Assembly (NCBI RefSeq): GCF_001553455.1
Contig: NZ_BBOX01000039.1
Coordinates: forward strand, 1-32,258
Direction of reading: 5' to 3'
Length of the DNA stretch: 32,258 bases
DNA from: Streptomyces hygroscopicus subsp. hygroscopicus
Lineage (GTDB): Bacteria > Actinomycetota > Actinomycetes > Streptomycetales > Streptomycetaceae
The notes under the pieces were generated by a model, which saw only the letters and a list, made by a program, of their open reading frames with translations, ran no database searches and was not told where the DNA came from. The translations under genes and the position numbers were made by a program. Of this stretch, positions 5,653 to 10,814 are shown piece after piece (position 1 is the stretch's first letter; every line of letters starts with the position of its first letter).

Positions 5653-6852
5653 TCAGTGGTCCGCGACGACGCCGGAGAGCTCGTTCGTGCTCTTCGGCAG
5701 GGTCACGGACGCGAGTTCGTCGCCCGATGCGAGGTCGATGGCGTGCACCCTGCGCTTGCTCGGTTCGGAGACGTACGCGGTGTGGCCGCGGACGAAGAGG
5801 GTGGGCCTGGCCTGCTGCCAGTCCAGCGGTTCCCGCCACGCGTCCACCACGGGGATCTTCTTCTCCACCTTTCCGGTCTCCGGGTCGATCACATGGAGGG
5901 CGCCGTTCGTGCCGAGGACGAGTGCCTCGCCGTGCGGTCCGCGCCCGAGCGAGCGGAAGGAGTAGCTGGTGCCCAGGTCGACGAGGCGGAGCCGGCCGGT
6001 CCCGGTGTCGATCAGCGACACGCGGGTCGGCCGCTCCAGTTCGGCGTCCGGGTCGGTCTTGTAGTCGCCCAGGAGGACCGGTGAGGCGTCGCTGCCCGCC
6101 TGGTTGCCGATGCGGCCGTAGGTGTCGGGGGCGTCGGCCTTGGTGAACTTGCCGTCCTTGTAGATGAGGACGCCGTCCTCGCAGCCGACGCCGATGGCCT
6201 CGCCCTTGGCCGCGGCTTCGCCGTGCACCCCGGGGCAGTTCTCGTTGCGCTTGATCTCCTTGTTGTCCTTGTCCAGGACGAGGACGCCGGTGCGCTTCTC
6301 CTCGGTGCCGAGGGTGCTGAGGAGTTCGCCGTTGCTCAGTTCGATGGCGACGCCGTGGTGCGGCTCGGCGGAGGTGTAGCCGCGGCCTTCCGGCTTCCTG
6401 CCGCCGGCGAGGTCGTCGGGGTCGAAGACGTCGACCTGGCCGGTGCCGTCGGTGAACAGGACCGTCTTGCCCGCGTGCCGTACCACGTGCCCGGGTTTGG
6501 CGCCCTGGTAGGCGATGTCGGTGAGGGTCTGTTCGGCGGCGTTCAGGACGCGGAAACCGCTGTCGGTGGAGAGGACGACGTGGGAGTCGTCACCGGCGGG
6601 GTTGACGCGGTTGAAGCCGGGCAGCGCGATCGTCCTGGCCAGGGTCAGTTTCTCGCCGTCCAGGATGTACAGCCCGCCGTCGAACGTGGCCACCAGCGGG
6701 TCCTTGACCTCGGTGGCCTTCGTGCCCGGCCGGTCCCCGGCCTTCGCCCCGGACGAGGAGGTGTCCTCGCCCCCGCAAGCGGTCAGGACGGCGGCGGCCG
6801 CCAGGGCGAGGGCCGTGCCCGTGACGGCTCTGTGGCGTATCGGCTTGTTCAT
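5653..6852 (-). CDS. aztD: AztD-type zinc metallochaperone lipoprotein
   Basis: A 399-residue exported lipoprotein, with signal peptide residues 1-25 and lipobox LTAC ending at Cys26. The body is a repeated beta-strand pattern of a propeller (LYILDGEKL, VDVFDPDDL, LIDTGTGRL, HVIDPETG, HAIDLASG). Histidine-bearing segments typical of AztD are present: PGHVVRHAG, SAEPHHGVAIEL and CPGVHGEAAAKG. AztD is known from Paracoccus to hand zinc to the binding protein AztC outside the membrane. The gene is last in the aztB-aztD2-aztC-aztD run, 83 bp after aztC. The ATG has AAGGA about 8 bases upstream, and a strong terminator follows at 5565-5596. Two cysteines (NENCPG and GVGCEDG) could form a disulphide. 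Function by family and context is well supported. Confidence 0.88.
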   Translation of the reverse strand: MNKPIRHRAVTGTALALAAAAVLTACGGEDTSSSGAKAGDRPGTKATEVKDPLVATFDGGLYILDGEKLTLARTIALPGFNRVNPAGDDSHVVLSTDSGFRVLNAAEQTLTDIAYQGAKPGHVVRHAGKTVLFTDGTGQVDVFDPDDLAGGRKPEGRGYTSAEPHHGVAIELSNGELLSTLGTEEKRTGVLVLDKDNKEIKRNENCPGVHGEAAAKGEAIGVGCEDGVLIYKDGKFTKADAPDTYGRIGNQAGSDASPVLLGDYKTDPDAELERPTRVSLIDTGTGRLRLVDLGTSYSFRSLGRGPHGEALVLGTNGALHVIDPETGKVEKKIPVVDAWREPLDWQQARPTLFVRGHTAYVSEPSKRRVHAIDLASGDELASVTLPKSTNELSGVVADH

Positions 6853-6935: not shown

Positions 6936-7940
6936 TCAGTCGCCGGTCAGCCCGTCGGTCATGGCGGTGGTGTTGGCGCGCATCATCCGCAGATAGGTGT
7001 CGGCGCCCTTGCCCTTCTCGGTCAGCGATTCGGAGTACAGCTCGATGACGCGCACCTGGCCGCCCAGCTCGGTGCGCAGGACCTCGGCCAGCCGCTTGGG
7101 CTGGGAGGAGTCGGCGAAGACGGTGTGCACCCCGGCGTCGCGCATGGCCCGGGTGAGCGAGCGCAGGTCGGAGGAGCTGGGCGAGGCCAGCGTCGTACCG
7201 CTCGGGATCACCGCGCCGATCACCCGGAAGCCGAAGCGGTCGGCGAGATAGCCGAAGACGTGGTGGTTGGTCACCAGCGCCCGCCGCTGCCGGGGTATGC
7301 CGTCGAAGGACTTCTCCATCCAGGTGGTGAGGCCGGCGAGTTGTTTCCGGTAGCGGGCGGCGTTGTCGTGGATCGTCCTGCCGTCCACGCCGTCCACGTG
7401 CTCCACCACCTGGTCCGCGATCAGGCCCACCGCCTCGCGCACCCGGTCGGGGTCGGTCCAGAAGTGCGGATCGGGCTGCCCGGCCTCCTCCTCGCGGTCA
7501 CCGCCGTCGTGCGCCCGGAAGGTGAGGGGGTGCACCGCCCTGCCGACCTCGAAGGTGGCCACGCCCAAGGCGCGGGCGGCGTCCACGTGGCGCAGGACGT
7601 TCTCCTCCAGGCCCAGCCCGTTGAAGACCACGAGGTCGGCGCGCTCCAGTTCGGCGGCCTGCACGGCCGACAGGCCGAAGGAGTGCGGGTCGGCGTTCGG
7701 CTTCATCAGCACGGTGACCTCGGCTTCGCGGCCGACGACTTGGCGGGTGATGTCGCCCAGGATGTTGGTCGTCACCACGACGCGGGGCCGGTCGTCGCGG
7801 TGCGCGCAGGCGGTCGCCGCACCGGCGCAGACGAGGAGGAGCAGGGCGAGCAGCAGGGTGTGCGGCCGGCGTGGCGCCCGTGTGCGTGGCGCCCATGTGC
7901 GTGGCGCCCGTGTGCGTGCCGCTCGGTTCCGTTCCGTCAT
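6936..7940 (-). CDS. aztC: Zinc ABC transporter substrate-binding lipoprotein AztC
   Basis: A 334-residue cluster A-I metal-binding protein (ZnuA/AztC type), anchored outside the membrane. Likely zinc ligands are His86 (NADPHSF), His159 (PDPHFWTDP), His226 or His227 (VTNHHVFG) and Asp277 (ADSSQ). The loop before His159 is short and acidic rather than histidine-rich, as in AztC and unlike ZnuA. The leader is odd: a 25-residue Arg/Pro/Thr-rich n-region made by a 15-bp DNA repeat precedes the hydrophobic core, and the lipobox-like ATAC ends at Cys45. The start codon overlaps the stop of the preceding aztD-like gene (ATGA, 7937-7940), implying translational coupling. It feeds zinc to AztB/AztA. 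Confidence 0.93.
   Translation of the reverse strand: MTERNRAARTRAPRTWAPRTRAPRRPHTLLLALLLLVCAGAATACAHRDDRPRVVVTTNILGDITRQVVGREAEVTVLMKPNADPHSFGLSAVQAAELERADLVVFNGLGLEENVLRHVDAARALGVATFEVGRAVHPLTFRAHDGGDREEEAGQPDPHFWTDPDRVREAVGLIADQVVEHVDGVDGRTIHDNAARYRKQLAGLTTWMEKSFDGIPRQRRALVTNHHVFGYLADRFGFRVIGAVIPSGTTLASPSSSDLRSLTRAMRDAGVHTVFADSSQPKRLAEVLRTELGGQVRVIELYSESLTEKGKGADTYLRMMRANTTAMTDGLTGD
7870..7914. repeat. 15-bp tandem repeat in aztC leader
   Basis: Three copies of CGTGGCGCCCRTGTG in tandem (7870-7884, 7885-7899, 7900-7914), differing at one base. Because the period is 15 bp, each copy adds five residues (RT-R/W-AP) to the positively charged start of the AztC signal peptide without a frameshift. 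Confidence 0.8.
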
Positions 7941-9178
7941 CGCCCGGTCTCCACCATCAGGTCCGGCTCGATGTCCAGGCCGAAGGAGCGCGCGACGCGC
8001 AGGTTGTCGTTGTAGTCGATCTCGTACACGCGGTTGCCCGCCGGGTCGTTGAGGTAGGCGCGGCTGCGGTCGACCTCGATGGCCGGTCCGCGGGTCCCGT
8101 CGGTGCCGCTCTCGGGGGCCTTGGTCAGGAGCGGTTTCGTTGCGGAGACGTGCTTGCCGCTGGCGATGTCGTAGCCGTGCAGCGACCGGTCGGTCTGCAG
8201 GACGATCAGGACCGAGCCCTCCCCCGCGGTGTTCGCGGCGACGACGGGCCCGGTCTTCACCCGGGTCCAGGTGCGCTCCGTGACGTCCAGGACCCATACG
8301 GCCCGGTCCCCGGCCGGCGCCGTGAGCGTGTCGCTGCCGGCCCGGTGGCGGAAGTCCGTGGCCCGTTCCTCCTCGGGGACATCGCCGCCGTACGCGATCT
8401 TCTCGGCCGTGAACGCGCCGTGGGACTCGCGTACGAGCAGGGCGCCGTCCGCGCATCCGAGGACGACGCCGCGCCGGGTGACGGCGTCGCCCCGCGGGTC
8501 CTCGCACTCCGCGGCCGGCGACGCGACGCGTTCGCCCTCGCGGTCGTACACCACGACCCTCGTGGAGCCCTTCCCGTCGTCCGTGAGAGCGAGCAGGTGT
8601 TCCGCGTACGGCACGACGGCGCCGGTATGCGCTCCGGCGAGCGCGCGGGAGGCGCCGACCTTCCCCTTCTCCCATTCGGTCCGGCGGTAGATGCTGGCCC
8701 GGCCGTCCTCGTCGGTCACCGCGGCCACGGCGGCGTCGCCGCGGATCCGTGTTCCGGGGCCGCCGGGGATCCGGCCGACGTCGCGGATCCGCGTGCGGTA
8801 GTAGTGGACGTGGTCGCCGTGGTCCACCATCCAGGCACCGCCGTCGAGGACGTGTGTGCCGCCCGTGGTGTGGAAGTAGCCGAACCGGCCGTCCGTGGTG
8901 AGTTCGGTGGTGCCCTGCCTCCGGGACACCTCGTGCGCTTTTCCGGTGATCAGGTCGAGTACCCGGGTGTCGCCGGTCTCGGGGTCGTTGAGCAGCAGCC
9001 GGGACTGCTGCTCGGCCGCCTCCTGTGCCCCCGCGACGTACCCGTGCGGGGCGGAGGCCGGAGGACCGGTCCGCGGGGCGGACGCGTTGCCGTCCTGGTC
9101 CGCACAGCCGGTGGTGAGCAGCGCCACGGCCGCGAAGACGGCCGATGCCCGGGCGGTGGCGTTTCTTCGTATCGACAA
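7937..9178 (-). CDS. Second AztD-like secreted propeller lipoprotein
   Basis: A 413-residue lipoprotein with signal peptide and lipobox LTTGC (Cys25). The body is a beta-propeller-like repeat (LLLNDPETGDTRVLDL, THVLDGG, WVLDVTERTW, HGYDIASGKH, VYEIDYND). A histidine patch, MVDHGDHVHYYRT, could bind zinc. Sequence pattern and position resemble AztD, but it differs strongly from the aztD copy at 5653. It begins with TTG 9178, preceded by TTGAGGCG about 8 bases upstream, and lies 22 bp after aztB and overlaps aztC by 4 bases. It is probably a second extracytoplasmic zinc carrier or a scaffold for AztC. Exact role unknown; family placement moderately sure. Confidence 0.8.
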   Translation of the reverse strand: MSIRRNATARASAVFAAVALLTTGCADQDGNASAPRTGPPASAPHGYVAGAQEAAEQQSRLLLNDPETGDTRVLDLITGKAHEVSRRQGTTELTTDGRFGYFHTTGGTHVLDGGAWMVDHGDHVHYYRTRIRDVGRIPGGPGTRIRGDAAVAAVTDEDGRASIYRRTEWEKGKVGASRALAGAHTGAVVPYAEHLLALTDDGKGSTRVVVYDREGERVASPAAECEDPRGDAVTRRGVVLGCADGALLVRESHGAFTAEKIAYGGDVPEEERATDFRHRAGSDTLTAPAGDRAVWVLDVTERTWTRVKTGPVVAANTAGEGSVLIVLQTDRSLHGYDIASGKHVSATKPLLTKAPESGTDGTRGPAIEVDRSRAYLNDPAGNRVYEIDYNDNLRVARSFGLDIEPDLMVETGR

Positions 9179-9200: not shown

Positions 9201-10058
9201 TCAGTCGGTTGCGGCGGGGTGGGCGCCGGGCCGGCGGGCCCGGCGGCGGTGGCGGAGGCCGGATGCCAGATGGGAGAGGAAGAACAGGCTCACCGCGAGG
9301 GCCGAGACGGTCGCCCCGGCCGCGGTGCTCAGATGCCAGGACAGCAGGAGGCCGCAGAAGGTGGCGGCGATGCCGAGCAGCGCCGCGAGGGCCATCACGC
9401 CCCGCACGCTGTGCGCCCAGGGCAGGGCGGCCGCCGGCGGAGCGATGAGCAGGCCGAGCACCAGCAGGGTGCCCACGATGTGGAAGGAGGCGACGATGGC
9501 CAGCGCCAGCAGGCCGAGCAGCACGGCGTGCGCCAGGCGCGGGCGCAGACCGAGCGTCCGGGCCTTGCGCGGGTCGAACGCCAGGGCGAGGAAGGCCCGG
9601 TGGCCGAGGACCGAGACGGCGAGCGCCAGCAGCAGGGCCACCCCCAGCAGCGCCAGGTCCTCCTCACGGACGGCGAGCACATCGCCGAAGAGGAACCCGG
9701 TCAGGTCGACCGCGAAGGACTGCGAGCGCGACACGATGATGACGCCGAGCGACAGCATCCCCACGAAGAGCAGGCCGATCCCGGTGTCCTGGGACAGCCT
9801 GGGGGTGCGGCCGAGCGCGGTGACGCCGGCCGTCATCACCGCCGCGCTCAGCAACGCCCCCACCAGCAGGTTGCCGCCCGTCAGCGCGGCCACCGCGACT
9901 CCGGGCAGCAGCCCGTGGGACATCGCGTCGCCGAGGAAGGCCATGCCCCGGAGCACGACCCAGGTGCCCGCCAGGGCACAGATCGCCGACACCAGCATCC
10001 CGCCCCACAGGGCCCGTTGCACGAAGGTCACCTCGAAGGGACCCGTCAGCCACTCCAC
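9201..10058 (-). CDS. aztB: Zinc ABC transporter permease AztB
   Basis: A 285-residue integral membrane protein of the ABC-3 (ZnuB/AztB) family, with about eight or nine hydrophobic segments. The diagnostic block RGMAFLGDAMSHGLLPGVA is near residue 40, and AFDPRKARTLGL forms the cytoplasmic coupling region. HIVGTLLVLGLLIAPPAAA follows. It forms the channel through which AztC-bound zinc enters, powered by AztA. I chose GTG 10058 because a -10-like TAGTGT lies 7 bases upstream, giving a leaderless message, and related proteins begin close to this point. GTG 10067 is the alternative. The start lies only 25 bp from the divergent aztA start, and a Zur box lies between. Confidence 0.93.
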   Translation of the reverse strand: MEWLTGPFEVTFVQRALWGGMLVSAICALAGTWVVLRGMAFLGDAMSHGLLPGVAVAALTGGNLLVGALLSAAVMTAGVTALGRTPRLSQDTGIGLLFVGMLSLGVIIVSRSQSFAVDLTGFLFGDVLAVREEDLALLGVALLLALAVSVLGHRAFLALAFDPRKARTLGLRPRLAHAVLLGLLALAIVASFHIVGTLLVLGLLIAPPAAALPWAHSVRGVMALAALLGIAATFCGLLLSWHLSTAAGATVSALAVSLFFLSHLASGLRHRRRARRPGAHPAATD

Positions 10059-10065
10059 GGCAAGC

Positions 10066-10075
10066 ACACTACAAT
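10066..10075. promoter_or_regulatory. Overlapping divergent -10 elements of aztB and aztA
   Basis: On the plus strand TACAAT (10070-10075) lies 7 bases before ATG 10083 of aztA. On the minus strand TAGTGT (10071-10066) lies 7 bases before GTG 10058 of aztB. The two hexamers share two bases. No Shine-Dalgarno sequence is present before either gene, which fits leaderless transcripts from back-to-back promoters. The -35 elements are weak. This is prediction from spacing. Confidence 0.55.
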
Positions 10076-10089
10076 GAAAATCATGTTCA
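10075..10089. promoter_or_regulatory. Zur box (zinc uptake regulator operator)
   Basis: TGAAAATCATGTTCA is a 7-1-7 imperfect palindrome that, as I recall the Streptomyces Zur consensus (TGAAAATCATTTTCA type), differs by one base. It is markedly AT-rich in a very GC-rich setting. It covers the -10/start region of aztA and lies just upstream of the aztB -10. Zinc-loaded Zur bound here would block both transcripts; under zinc shortage both would be expressed. Confidence 0.82.
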
Positions 10090-10814
10090 AAAAACCGGTG
10101 TTCTCCGCCACCGCCGGGGACCGTTCACCCCGCGTCCGCCTCAGCGAGCTGTCCGCCGGCTACCCCGGCCGTCCCGTCCTCCACCAACTCGACGCCGACA
10201 TACCGGCGTTGGCCATCACCGCGCTCGTCGGCCCGAACGGCAGCGGAAAGTCCACCCTGCTCGGGGTGGTGGCCGGTGTGATCCGGCCGACATCGGGCGA
10301 GCTCCTCCACAACGGCGGCCGGCCGCCGGCGTTCGTCCCGCAGCGCGGAGCCGTCGGTGACGCACTGCCGCTGACGGTCCGGCAGACCGTGGAGATGGGA
10401 CGCTGGGGCGACCGCGGGCCGTGGCGCCGGCTGACCCGGCGGGACCGCGCCACGGTGGACACCGCCATGGAACGGCTGGCCGTCACCGGCCTGGCCGCAC
10501 GCCAACTCGCGGAGCTGTCGGGCGGACAGCGGCAACGCGTCCTGATCGCCCAGGGACTCGCCCAGGAGTCGGACCTGCTGCTGCTGGACGAGCCCACCAC
10601 GGGCCTCGATCCGGAGGCCCGGGAGCGGATCACGACGCTGCTGACGGAGCTGGTCACCGACGGGGTGACCGTCGTCCAGGCCACCCACGACCTGGCGGCC
10701 GCACGCTCGGCGGACGCCTGTCTCCTGCTCCACGACGGTCACCTGGCCGGGCAGGGGGACCCCGCGCAGCTCCTCACCGCTTCCACGCTCGCCCGGATCT
10801 GGCAACCGGTGTGA
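10083..10814 (+). CDS. aztA: Zinc ABC transporter ATP-binding protein AztA
   Basis: A 243-residue cytoplasmic ATPase. Walker A GPNGSGKS is at residues 50-57. The Q-loop region PAFVPQRGAV, the signature LSGGQRQR, Walker B LLLLDEPTTG and the switch histidine in ATHD follow in order. It powers the AztB permease. It is encoded alone and divergent from the aztB operon, unlike a simple aztABCD order. ATG 10083 lies 7 bases after a TACAAT -10, so the message is probably leaderless. ATG 10074 and GTG 10098 are alternative starts; the conserved domain begins only near residue 18. The Zur box overlaps the start codon. Confidence 0.94.
   Translation: MFKKPVFSATAGDRSPRVRLSELSAGYPGRPVLHQLDADIPALAITALVGPNGSGKSTLLGVVAGVIRPTSGELLHNGGRPPAFVPQRGAVGDALPLTVRQTVEMGRWGDRGPWRRLTRRDRATVDTAMERLAVTGLAARQLAELSGGQRQRVLIAQGLAQESDLLLLDEPTTGLDPEARERITTLLTELVTDGVTVVQATHDLAAARSADACLLLHDGHLAGQGDPAQLLTASTLARIWQPV

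What the first reader, a model, noticed from the sequence alone, without database searches (positions are those of the whole stretch)
10058..10089. Zur box inside a compact leaderless divergent promoter of aztA and aztB
The starts of aztB (GTG 10058) and aztA (ATG 10083) are about 25 bp apart. Between them lie overlapping -10 elements and a 15-bp palindrome one base off my recollection of the Streptomyces Zur consensus. No ribosome binding sites are present. One repressor molecule could silence both halves of the transporter at a single site.
Basis: partly seen in the sequence, partly recalled or inferred. Interest (0 to 1): 0.72.

Follow-up and report, generated by a model that had tools for sequence, protein, structure and literature searches.

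The report
Start codon inside a zinc-repressor site
In this Streptomyces, the 24-base gap between two oppositely read zinc-transporter genes carries one sequence matching the published landing site of the zinc-sensing repressor Zur, with the likely start codon of one gene lying inside it, so a single bound repressor would probably shut off both halves of the transporter when zinc is plentiful.

Summary
aztB (GTG 10058, minus) and aztA (ATG 10083, plus) are 24 bp apart. TGAAAATCATGTTCA (10075-10089) fits the published S. coelicolor Zur ChIP consensus with 0 mismatches; that consensus occurs at 2 places in the 9.46 Mb genome (reversed control 0). Overlapping -10 hexamers (TACAAT, TAGTGT) each end 7 nt before a start codon. 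All 98 distinct related gaps compared keep TANNNT 6-8 nt before aztB. The genome encodes a close relative of S. coelicolor Zur, and its znuA has two box-like sites. The design has a tested precedent, Corynebacterium glutamicum cg0042/cg0043 (29-bp gap, one Zur motif, leaderless starts, Zur gel shift), so it is a known kind. New here: in one clade, nearly all Streptomyces, box position 11 is G in 77 of 77 gaps, against T in 21 of 21 outside it. That base makes the aztA ATG part of the operator. Outside the clade aztA starts further downstream, with a ribosome-binding-site-like match in 17 of 20. One change on the AztB tree explains the split. Zur binding, transcript ends and leaderless translation are inferred here, not measured.

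The parts
10075..10089 (.). Predicted Zur operator TGAAAATCATGTTCA (7-1-7), containing the aztA start codon at box positions 9-11
   Evidence: 0 mismatches to published tGaNNatSatNNtCa; column conservation in 98 distinct gaps
10070..10075 (+). Predicted -10 element of aztA, TACAAT
   Evidence: TACAAT (69) or TATAAT (8) exactly 7 nt before the box ATG in 77 of 77 clade members; background 0 of 7258 ATGs
10066..10071 (-). Predicted -10 element of aztB, TAGTGT, sharing TA (10070-10071) with the aztA -10
   Evidence: TANNNT 6-8 nt before the aztB start in 98 of 98 distinct gaps; background 185 of 53905 ATG/GTG triplets
10083..10085 (+). ATG of aztA inside the operator; predicted transcript start at A10083
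   Evidence: in frame with the Walker A motif in 75 of 76 clade loci; 43 of 76 have no further in-frame start within 110 nt of the box
10074..10076 (+). Upstream in-frame ATG that overlaps the -10; judged not to be the start
   Evidence: cannot be the aztA start in 18 of 20 loci outside the clade; annotated as start in two S. clavuligerus records
10056..10058 (-). GTG start codon of aztB; predicted transcript start at 10058
   Evidence: the matched first codon is ATG in 94 of 98 distinct gaps, GTG in 3; the last (L037) is my one-base offset and reads ATG
10083..10814 (+). aztA, zinc ABC transporter ATPase
   Evidence: NF040873 269.7 bits, cut-off 220
9201..10058 (-). aztB, zinc ABC transporter permease
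   Evidence: NF040871 372.6 bits, cut-off 280
7937..9178 (-). AztD-like protein between aztB and aztC
   Evidence: NF038015 66.3 bits, below cut-off 400
6936..7937 (-). aztC, zinc-binding protein
   Evidence: NF040870 394.3 bits, cut-off 350
5653..6852 (-). aztD, zinc metallochaperone
   Evidence: NF038015 481.5 bits, cut-off 400

Best explanation
The 24-bp gap between aztB and aztA carries one sequence that matches the published Zur box (10075-10089), and zinc-loaded Zur bound there would likely repress both genes at once, because the box spans the predicted aztA start point and lies directly upstream of the predicted aztB -10. The two -10 hexamers share a TA dinucleotide, so RNA polymerase is expected to open the DNA for one gene at a time, making this a bidirectional promoter (inferred). 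Both mRNAs are predicted to begin at their start codons (10083 and 10058), without leaders. When zinc falls, Zur should leave and both halves of the transporter be made together (inferred from the C. glutamicum counterpart). In the clade that includes this genome, a T-to-G change at box position 11 is inferred to have moved the aztA start codon into the operator. The same bases would then serve as repressor half-site and initiation codon, and the operator would fix the first codons of AztA (Met-Phe, then a codon starting with A).
For: Consensus match and rarity. The signature TAYAATGAMAAYCATGTTCA occurs in 20 of 150 genus genomes, once each, in every case beside an AztB match; reversed control 0. 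TANNNT 6-8 nt before aztB: 98 of 98; TAYAAT exactly 7 nt before the box ATG: 77 of 77. Box position 11: G 77 of 77 in the clade, T 21 of 21 outside; codon 2 is TTC 77 of 77, codon 3 starts with A 77 of 77 while coding K, N, I, T, S or R. Frame and scarcity of other starts. One clade on the AztB tree, support 100/98. A Fur-family protein of this genome scores 262.9 bits to the chain of 7vo0, named as S. coelicolor Zur on zitB DNA in PMC11077047. znuA lies on the same contig with two box-like sites, as published for S. coelicolor. C. glutamicum cg0042/cg0043: 29-bp gap, one motif, leaderless starts, zinc-dependent Zur gel shift, both genes up in a zur mutant. In S. coelicolor 21.0% of primary starts are leaderless and 80.4% of starts have TANNNT.
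Against: No Zur binding or RNA 5' end measured at this gap was seen for any Streptomyces. I saw no clear -35 for either gene by eye (the promoter scan tool was not run); -35 motifs are found for only 58.6% of S. coelicolor starts. Two S. clavuligerus records annotate the aztA start at the ATG corresponding to 10074. Some clade members have a 4-5 nt Shine-Dalgarno-like match before that ATG. The G at position 11 breaks operator symmetry and could weaken binding. The sequences are related and 80 of the 110 are the closest hits of a capped list, so counts are not independent events.
Confidence: 0.82

Rival explanations
1. aztA starts at ATG 10074, as annotation pipelines place it, on an mRNA that begins further upstream; the ATG at 10083 is then an internal methionine and the start codon is not specially embedded in the box.
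For: S. clavuligerus aztA is annotated from the corresponding ATG in the two records looked at; that ATG is listed as in frame in 75 of 76 clade loci.
Against: ATG 10074 overlaps TACAAT, so an mRNA from that promoter would start after it. In 18 of 20 loci outside the clade that ATG cannot start aztA (in 15 the aztA frame has a later stop codon, in 3 more the ATG is out of frame), so its conservation is explained by the -10 and box. It does not explain why position 11 is G in 77 of 77 clade gaps and T in 21 of 21 outside.
Confidence: 0.12
2. The box is a Zur operator for only one of the two genes; the other is expressed independently.
For: The box lies asymmetrically: over the aztA start but beginning 17 bases upstream of the aztB start.
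Against: The two -10 hexamers share two bases, and the published Zur footprint at the zitB box is 38 bp, enough to cover both if centred. In C. glutamicum both genes rise in the zur mutant.
Confidence: 0.08
3. Another Fur-family regulator, or no repressor, acts here; the conserved block is only a bidirectional promoter.
For: The genome has four Fur-family genes; -10 elements account for part of the conservation.
Against: Box positions beyond the -10 are conserved both where they are coding and where they are not and match the Zur ChIP motif; the genes are zinc transporter genes.
Confidence: 0.05

Closest known systems
Corynebacterium glutamicum cg0040-cg0041-cg0042/cg0043 (znuB2/znuC2) Zur-controlled divergent gap (PMC2823685, passages)
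   Same: Same gene order (secreted protein, binding protein, permease / ATPase); tiny gap (29 bp); one Zur motif for both units; leaderless starts (cg0042 mapped; cg0043 deduced according to the figure legend). The AztB family model rings in the C. glutamicum control genome (over the cut-off in one of the two ringing controls, not said which).
   Different: There the motif is described as overlapping the core promoter regions; in the passages read I saw no statement that a start codon lies inside it. Here the gap is 24 bp and the aztA ATG is box positions 9-11.
Streptomyces coelicolor Zur regulon (znuA, zitB and others; PMC5472717, passages and outline)
   Same: Same 15-bp box and a closely related Zur; a two-box znuA is also in this genome.
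   Different: The passages read and the S. coelicolor row of the review table (PMC6103462) do not list azt genes.
Bidirectional promoters with near-symmetrical -10 elements (PMC10268837, passages, citing Warman et al. 2021)
   Same: Opposed starts 7-25 bp apart with overlapping -10 elements; here predicted 25 bp.
   Different: The usual spacing is 18 bp and the second RNA is often antisense and non-coding; here both products would be repressor-controlled mRNAs.
Paracoccus denitrificans aztABCD (PMC5387054, passages)
   Same: Same transporter family under Zur.
   Different: The motif lies in the aztA promoter; the genes are treated there as one aztABCD operon and the consensus differs.
Mesorhizobium nreAXY leaderless, repressor-controlled promoter (PMC12724321, passages)
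   Same: Metal-responsive repressor, compact promoter, leaderless mRNA.
   Different: CsoR/RcnR-family repressor; operator in the -35/-10 spacer, not over the start codon; one direction.

Membership tests
Streptomyces Zur operator | Match to tGaNNatSatNNtCa | tested here: met
   0 mismatches at 10075-10089
Streptomyces Zur operator | Zur present in the genome | tested here: met
   C127:2270-2617, 262.9 bits to 7vo0 and 262.6 to 3mwm
Streptomyces Zur operator | Zinc-dependent Zur binding | not testable with these tools
   needs gel shift or ChIP
C. glutamicum-type divergent leaderless Zur gap | Divergent permease and ATPase genes with a gap of about 30 bp or less and one Zur motif | tested here: met
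   24-bp gap, one box
C. glutamicum-type divergent leaderless Zur gap | -10 spacing that puts both transcript starts at start codons | tested here: met
   7 nt on each side; 6-8 nt in 98 of 98 for aztB and 7 nt in 77 of 77 clade gaps for aztA
C. glutamicum-type divergent leaderless Zur gap | Mapped 5' ends at the start codons | not testable with these tools
   no RNA data here
AztABCD zinc transporter locus | AztA, AztB, AztC and AztD above curated cut-offs | tested here: met
Bidirectional promoter | Opposed transcript starts 7-25 bp apart | tested here: inconclusive
   predicted 25 bp from -10 positions only; 24-26 bp across the clade (its single 23 is my one-base offset in L037)
Leaderless mRNA | 5' leader shorter than about 9 nt and no Shine-Dalgarno | tested here: inconclusive
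   no Shine-Dalgarno match and -10 spacing fit; leader length not measured

The most novel reading that the evidence does not exclude
A single T-to-G change in a Zur operator turned a repressor half-site into a start codon: in this clade the aztA mRNA begins inside its own operator, zinc-bound Zur sits on the initiation codon, and the operator dictates the protein's first residues. Zur operators may capture start codons repeatedly: the own-genome znuA box 2 ends on the A of its ATG, and one locus of another family (L154) has the aztA ATG at box position 15.
Probability: 0.6. Interest if true: 0.55.

Novelty: new variant of a known kind. Interest (0 to 1): 0.48.

Why it matters
It gives a clear natural case of a gene apparently losing its leader by one base change inside a repressor site, with the derived form and likely older forms both alive in one genus. 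That makes two questions directly testable: how leaderless genes arise, and what an operator pays to carry a start codon. It also predicts that AztA starts three codons later than the S. clavuligerus records have it, and that zinc uptake in these bacteria is switched from a very compact two-way promoter.

Tried and rejected
Rejected or weakened: (1) that a -10 hexamer before a start codon is itself evidence: TANNNT-N6-8-ATG is only mildly enriched genome-wide (839 against 671). (2) ATG 10074 as the start. (3) A clear -35 element: none seen on either side by eye; the scan tool was not run. (4) The recalled pattern TGNNAATNATTNNCA: it misses this box and hits one other place; the published consensus replaced it. 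(5) Novelty of the overall design: withdrawn after reading passages of the C. glutamicum Zur paper.

Counts against the reading: only 30 of 150 genus genomes have an AztB match of 67% identity or more. In class-wide loci L163, L164, L165 and L167 no TANNNT stands 6-8 nt before an in-frame aztB start (40 of 44 have it, one of them, L166, at an odd distance from the box). Three over-cut-off AztB loci (L168-L170) have no box-like stretch and no aztA found at that place, nor do three fetched below the cut-off (L171-L173). A Walker A frame in the divergent direction was found in 42 of the 44 (not L145, L166). In L091 the box ATG is not in frame with the Walker A motif; two clade loci do not reach the conserved AGY, by the translations these are L091 and L037; the L037 aztB match is split. 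L036 and L086 gave no Walker A match and were left out of the frame counts. The tree left out L037 (97 of 98 rows). In L037 my start index was one base off (true gap one longer). Values below 4 in the Shine-Dalgarno column come from cut strings and mean none. One member of the embedded-start clade is titled Kitasatospora aureofaciens (L075), so 'Streptomyces clade' is loose. The znuA boxes differ from the recalled consensus at 3 positions each, in a search that listed 18 rows against 3 control matches.

Literature: I found no description of an operator-embedded start codon at azt in the listings of searches (titles and abstract openings of 9 to 12 papers each, out of 10, 330, 375 and 22 holding the terms) or in passages of the nine papers read. 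The library lacks most subscription journals; the 2007 S. coelicolor Zur paper PMC1913400 was not held, the 2010 one was not tried. Supplementary tables were not tried, as the session allows none.

Full report
What is there. AztA, AztB, AztC and AztD score above NCBIfam cut-offs. The aztB start (GTG 10058) and aztA start (ATG 10083) leave 24 bases between them.

The operator. TGAAAATCATGTTCA at 10075-10089 matches the 15-bp motif tGaNNatSatNNtCa found by ChIP-chip for S. coelicolor Zur (PMC5472717, passages and outline) at every defined position. The consensus, palindromic as written, occurs at 2 places in 9.46 Mb with 0 for the reversed pattern. In the window, with up to 1 mismatch, it occurs at 1 place against a shuffle mean of 0.04. 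The same genome encodes a Fur-family protein with 262.9 bits to the chain of 7vo0, which PMC11077047 names as S. coelicolor Zur on zitB DNA (passages). It lies on contig C127 with znuA, and znuA is preceded by two box-like stretches, as published for S. coelicolor.

The promoters. TACAAT (10070-10075) on the plus strand and TAGTGT (10071-10066) on the minus strand share the TA at 10070-10071 and each ends 7 nt before a start codon. I compared 110 related loci: 30 and the 80, which are the best of 254. Of these, 98 are distinct across the gap. A TANNNT hexamer stands 6-8 nt before the aztB start in 98 of 98; the same spacing precedes 185 of 53905 other ATG/GTG triplets in these loci. TACAAT or TATAAT stands exactly 7 nt before the box ATG in 77 of 77 clade members; background 0 of 7258. 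In S. coelicolor 80.4% of mapped starts have TANNNT and 21.0% of primary starts are leaderless (PMC4895711, passages). So leaderless starts at both codons are predicted, not shown.

The embedded start codon. The 98 gaps fall into 77 with ATG at box positions 9-11 and 21 without. Position 11 is G in 77 of 77 and T in 21 of 21. Among 76 clade loci with a findable Walker A motif the box ATG is in frame in 75, none has a stop between, and 43 have no other in-frame start within 110 nt of the box. None of the 75 has a Shine-Dalgarno match of 4 nt or more at the box ATG. Outside the clade, taking the start I judged most likely, aztA begins about 30-60 nt after the first box base, with a Shine-Dalgarno-like match of 4 nt or more in 17 of 20 (not L027, L028, L098). 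The ATG at 10074 is conserved too, but in 15 of 20 loci outside the clade the aztA frame has a stop codon after it and in 3 more it is out of frame, so it is best explained as part of the -10 and box. In the clade, AztA codon 2 is TTC in 77 of 77 and codon 3 begins with A in 77 of 77 although it codes six different residues, as expected if the operator constrains the coding sequence.

History. A maximum-likelihood tree of 97 AztB proteins puts the 76 embedded-start sequences on one side of one branch (support 100/98; one change; the bootstrap had not fully settled). The root was only drawn at the midpoint, but the six rows from other families in the tree (two Nocardia; Nonomuraea, Saccharopolyspora, Prauserella and Marinactinospora) carry the T form, so T-to-G is the likely direction. 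One row inside the clade is titled Kitasatospora. Across the class, 44 of 47 AztB loci over the family cut-off have a box-like stretch (at least 10 of 15 letters of a recalled Zur-like string; the six loci without one score 7-9) at the gap upstream of aztB; an aztA Walker A frame in the divergent direction was found in 42 of the 44, and 40 of the 44 keep the aztB -10 spacing (three of the 47 are also in the set of 110). The leaderless-type aztB thus looks old and the operator-embedded aztA young. The 20-base signature TAYAATGAMAAYCATGTTCA is present in 20 of 150 genus genomes, once each, beside aztB, with 0 for the reversed control (one search read).

Mechanism. Zur at low concentration footprints 38 bp around the zitB box. 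If centred on 10082, that would cover both -10 elements. Zur with zinc should thus exclude RNA polymerase from both promoters; because the -10 elements share bases, only one polymerase should open at a time even without Zur. These steps are inferred. The nearest tested case is C. glutamicum cg0042/cg0043 (PMC2823685, passages): 29-bp gap, one Zur motif, starts at the A of the ATG (cg0042 mapped; cg0043 deduced according to the figure legend), zinc-dependent gel shift of the gap, both genes up in a zur mutant, and zinc- and Zur-dependent activity of the cg0042 promoter. Its gene order is that of this locus, and the AztB family rings in the C. glutamicum control genome. The predicted spacing of the two transcript starts, 25 bp, is at the edge of the 7-25 bp used to define bidirectional promoters (PMC10268837, passages).

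Other papers read as passages: PMC5387054, PMC8914203, PMC6103462 and PMC12724321.

Verdict. The design is a known kind, described in C. glutamicum in 2010. The variant with the start codon captured by the operator through one base was not found described in the searches listed. It is a modest but clean and testable case.

Noticed in passing
G000 C127, locus L007:1440-1560 (znuA promoter of the same genome): Two Zur-like boxes upstream of znuA; the second (TGAAAATGAGAGTCA on the znuA strand) ends on the A of the likely znuA ATG, with GAAAAT 7 nt before it, so znuA may also be leaderless with a start codon touching its operator.
   Followed up: partly
window 7937-9178: A 413-aa AztD-like protein (66 bits, far below the 400-bit cut-off) lies between aztB and aztC besides the true AztD; S. 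clavuligerus has a 'hypothetical protein' in the same place.
   Followed up: no
L154 (G407:C35): aztA ATG lies at box position 15, with GACAAT ending 7 nt before it: another register of start codon and Zur-like box in another family.
   Followed up: partly
L163 and L165: aztA reading frame can open at an ATG touching the first base of the box, with no clear -10 at the usual distance; aztB there lacks the usual -10 spacing.
   Followed up: no
L174:6820-6870 (S. clavuligerus pSCL4): aztA is annotated from the ATG that overlaps the -10, three codons upstream of the start predicted here; a possible annotation error, seen the same in a second record.
   Followed up: partly
L003:1501-1515 (G000 C53): The only genome place matching TGNNAATNATTNNCA (TGTGAATGATTGTCA), just upstream of a gene that by eye looks like an ABC ATPase; a possible further Zur target.
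   Followed up: no
L027 and L028 (sister group of the embedded-start clade): aztA has a downstream ATG but no Shine-Dalgarno match of 4 nt or more; possibly an intermediate state.
   Followed up: no
L091 and L037 (G009): The aztA (L091) and aztB/aztA (L037) reading frames appear broken; could be decay or sequencing error.
   Followed up: no
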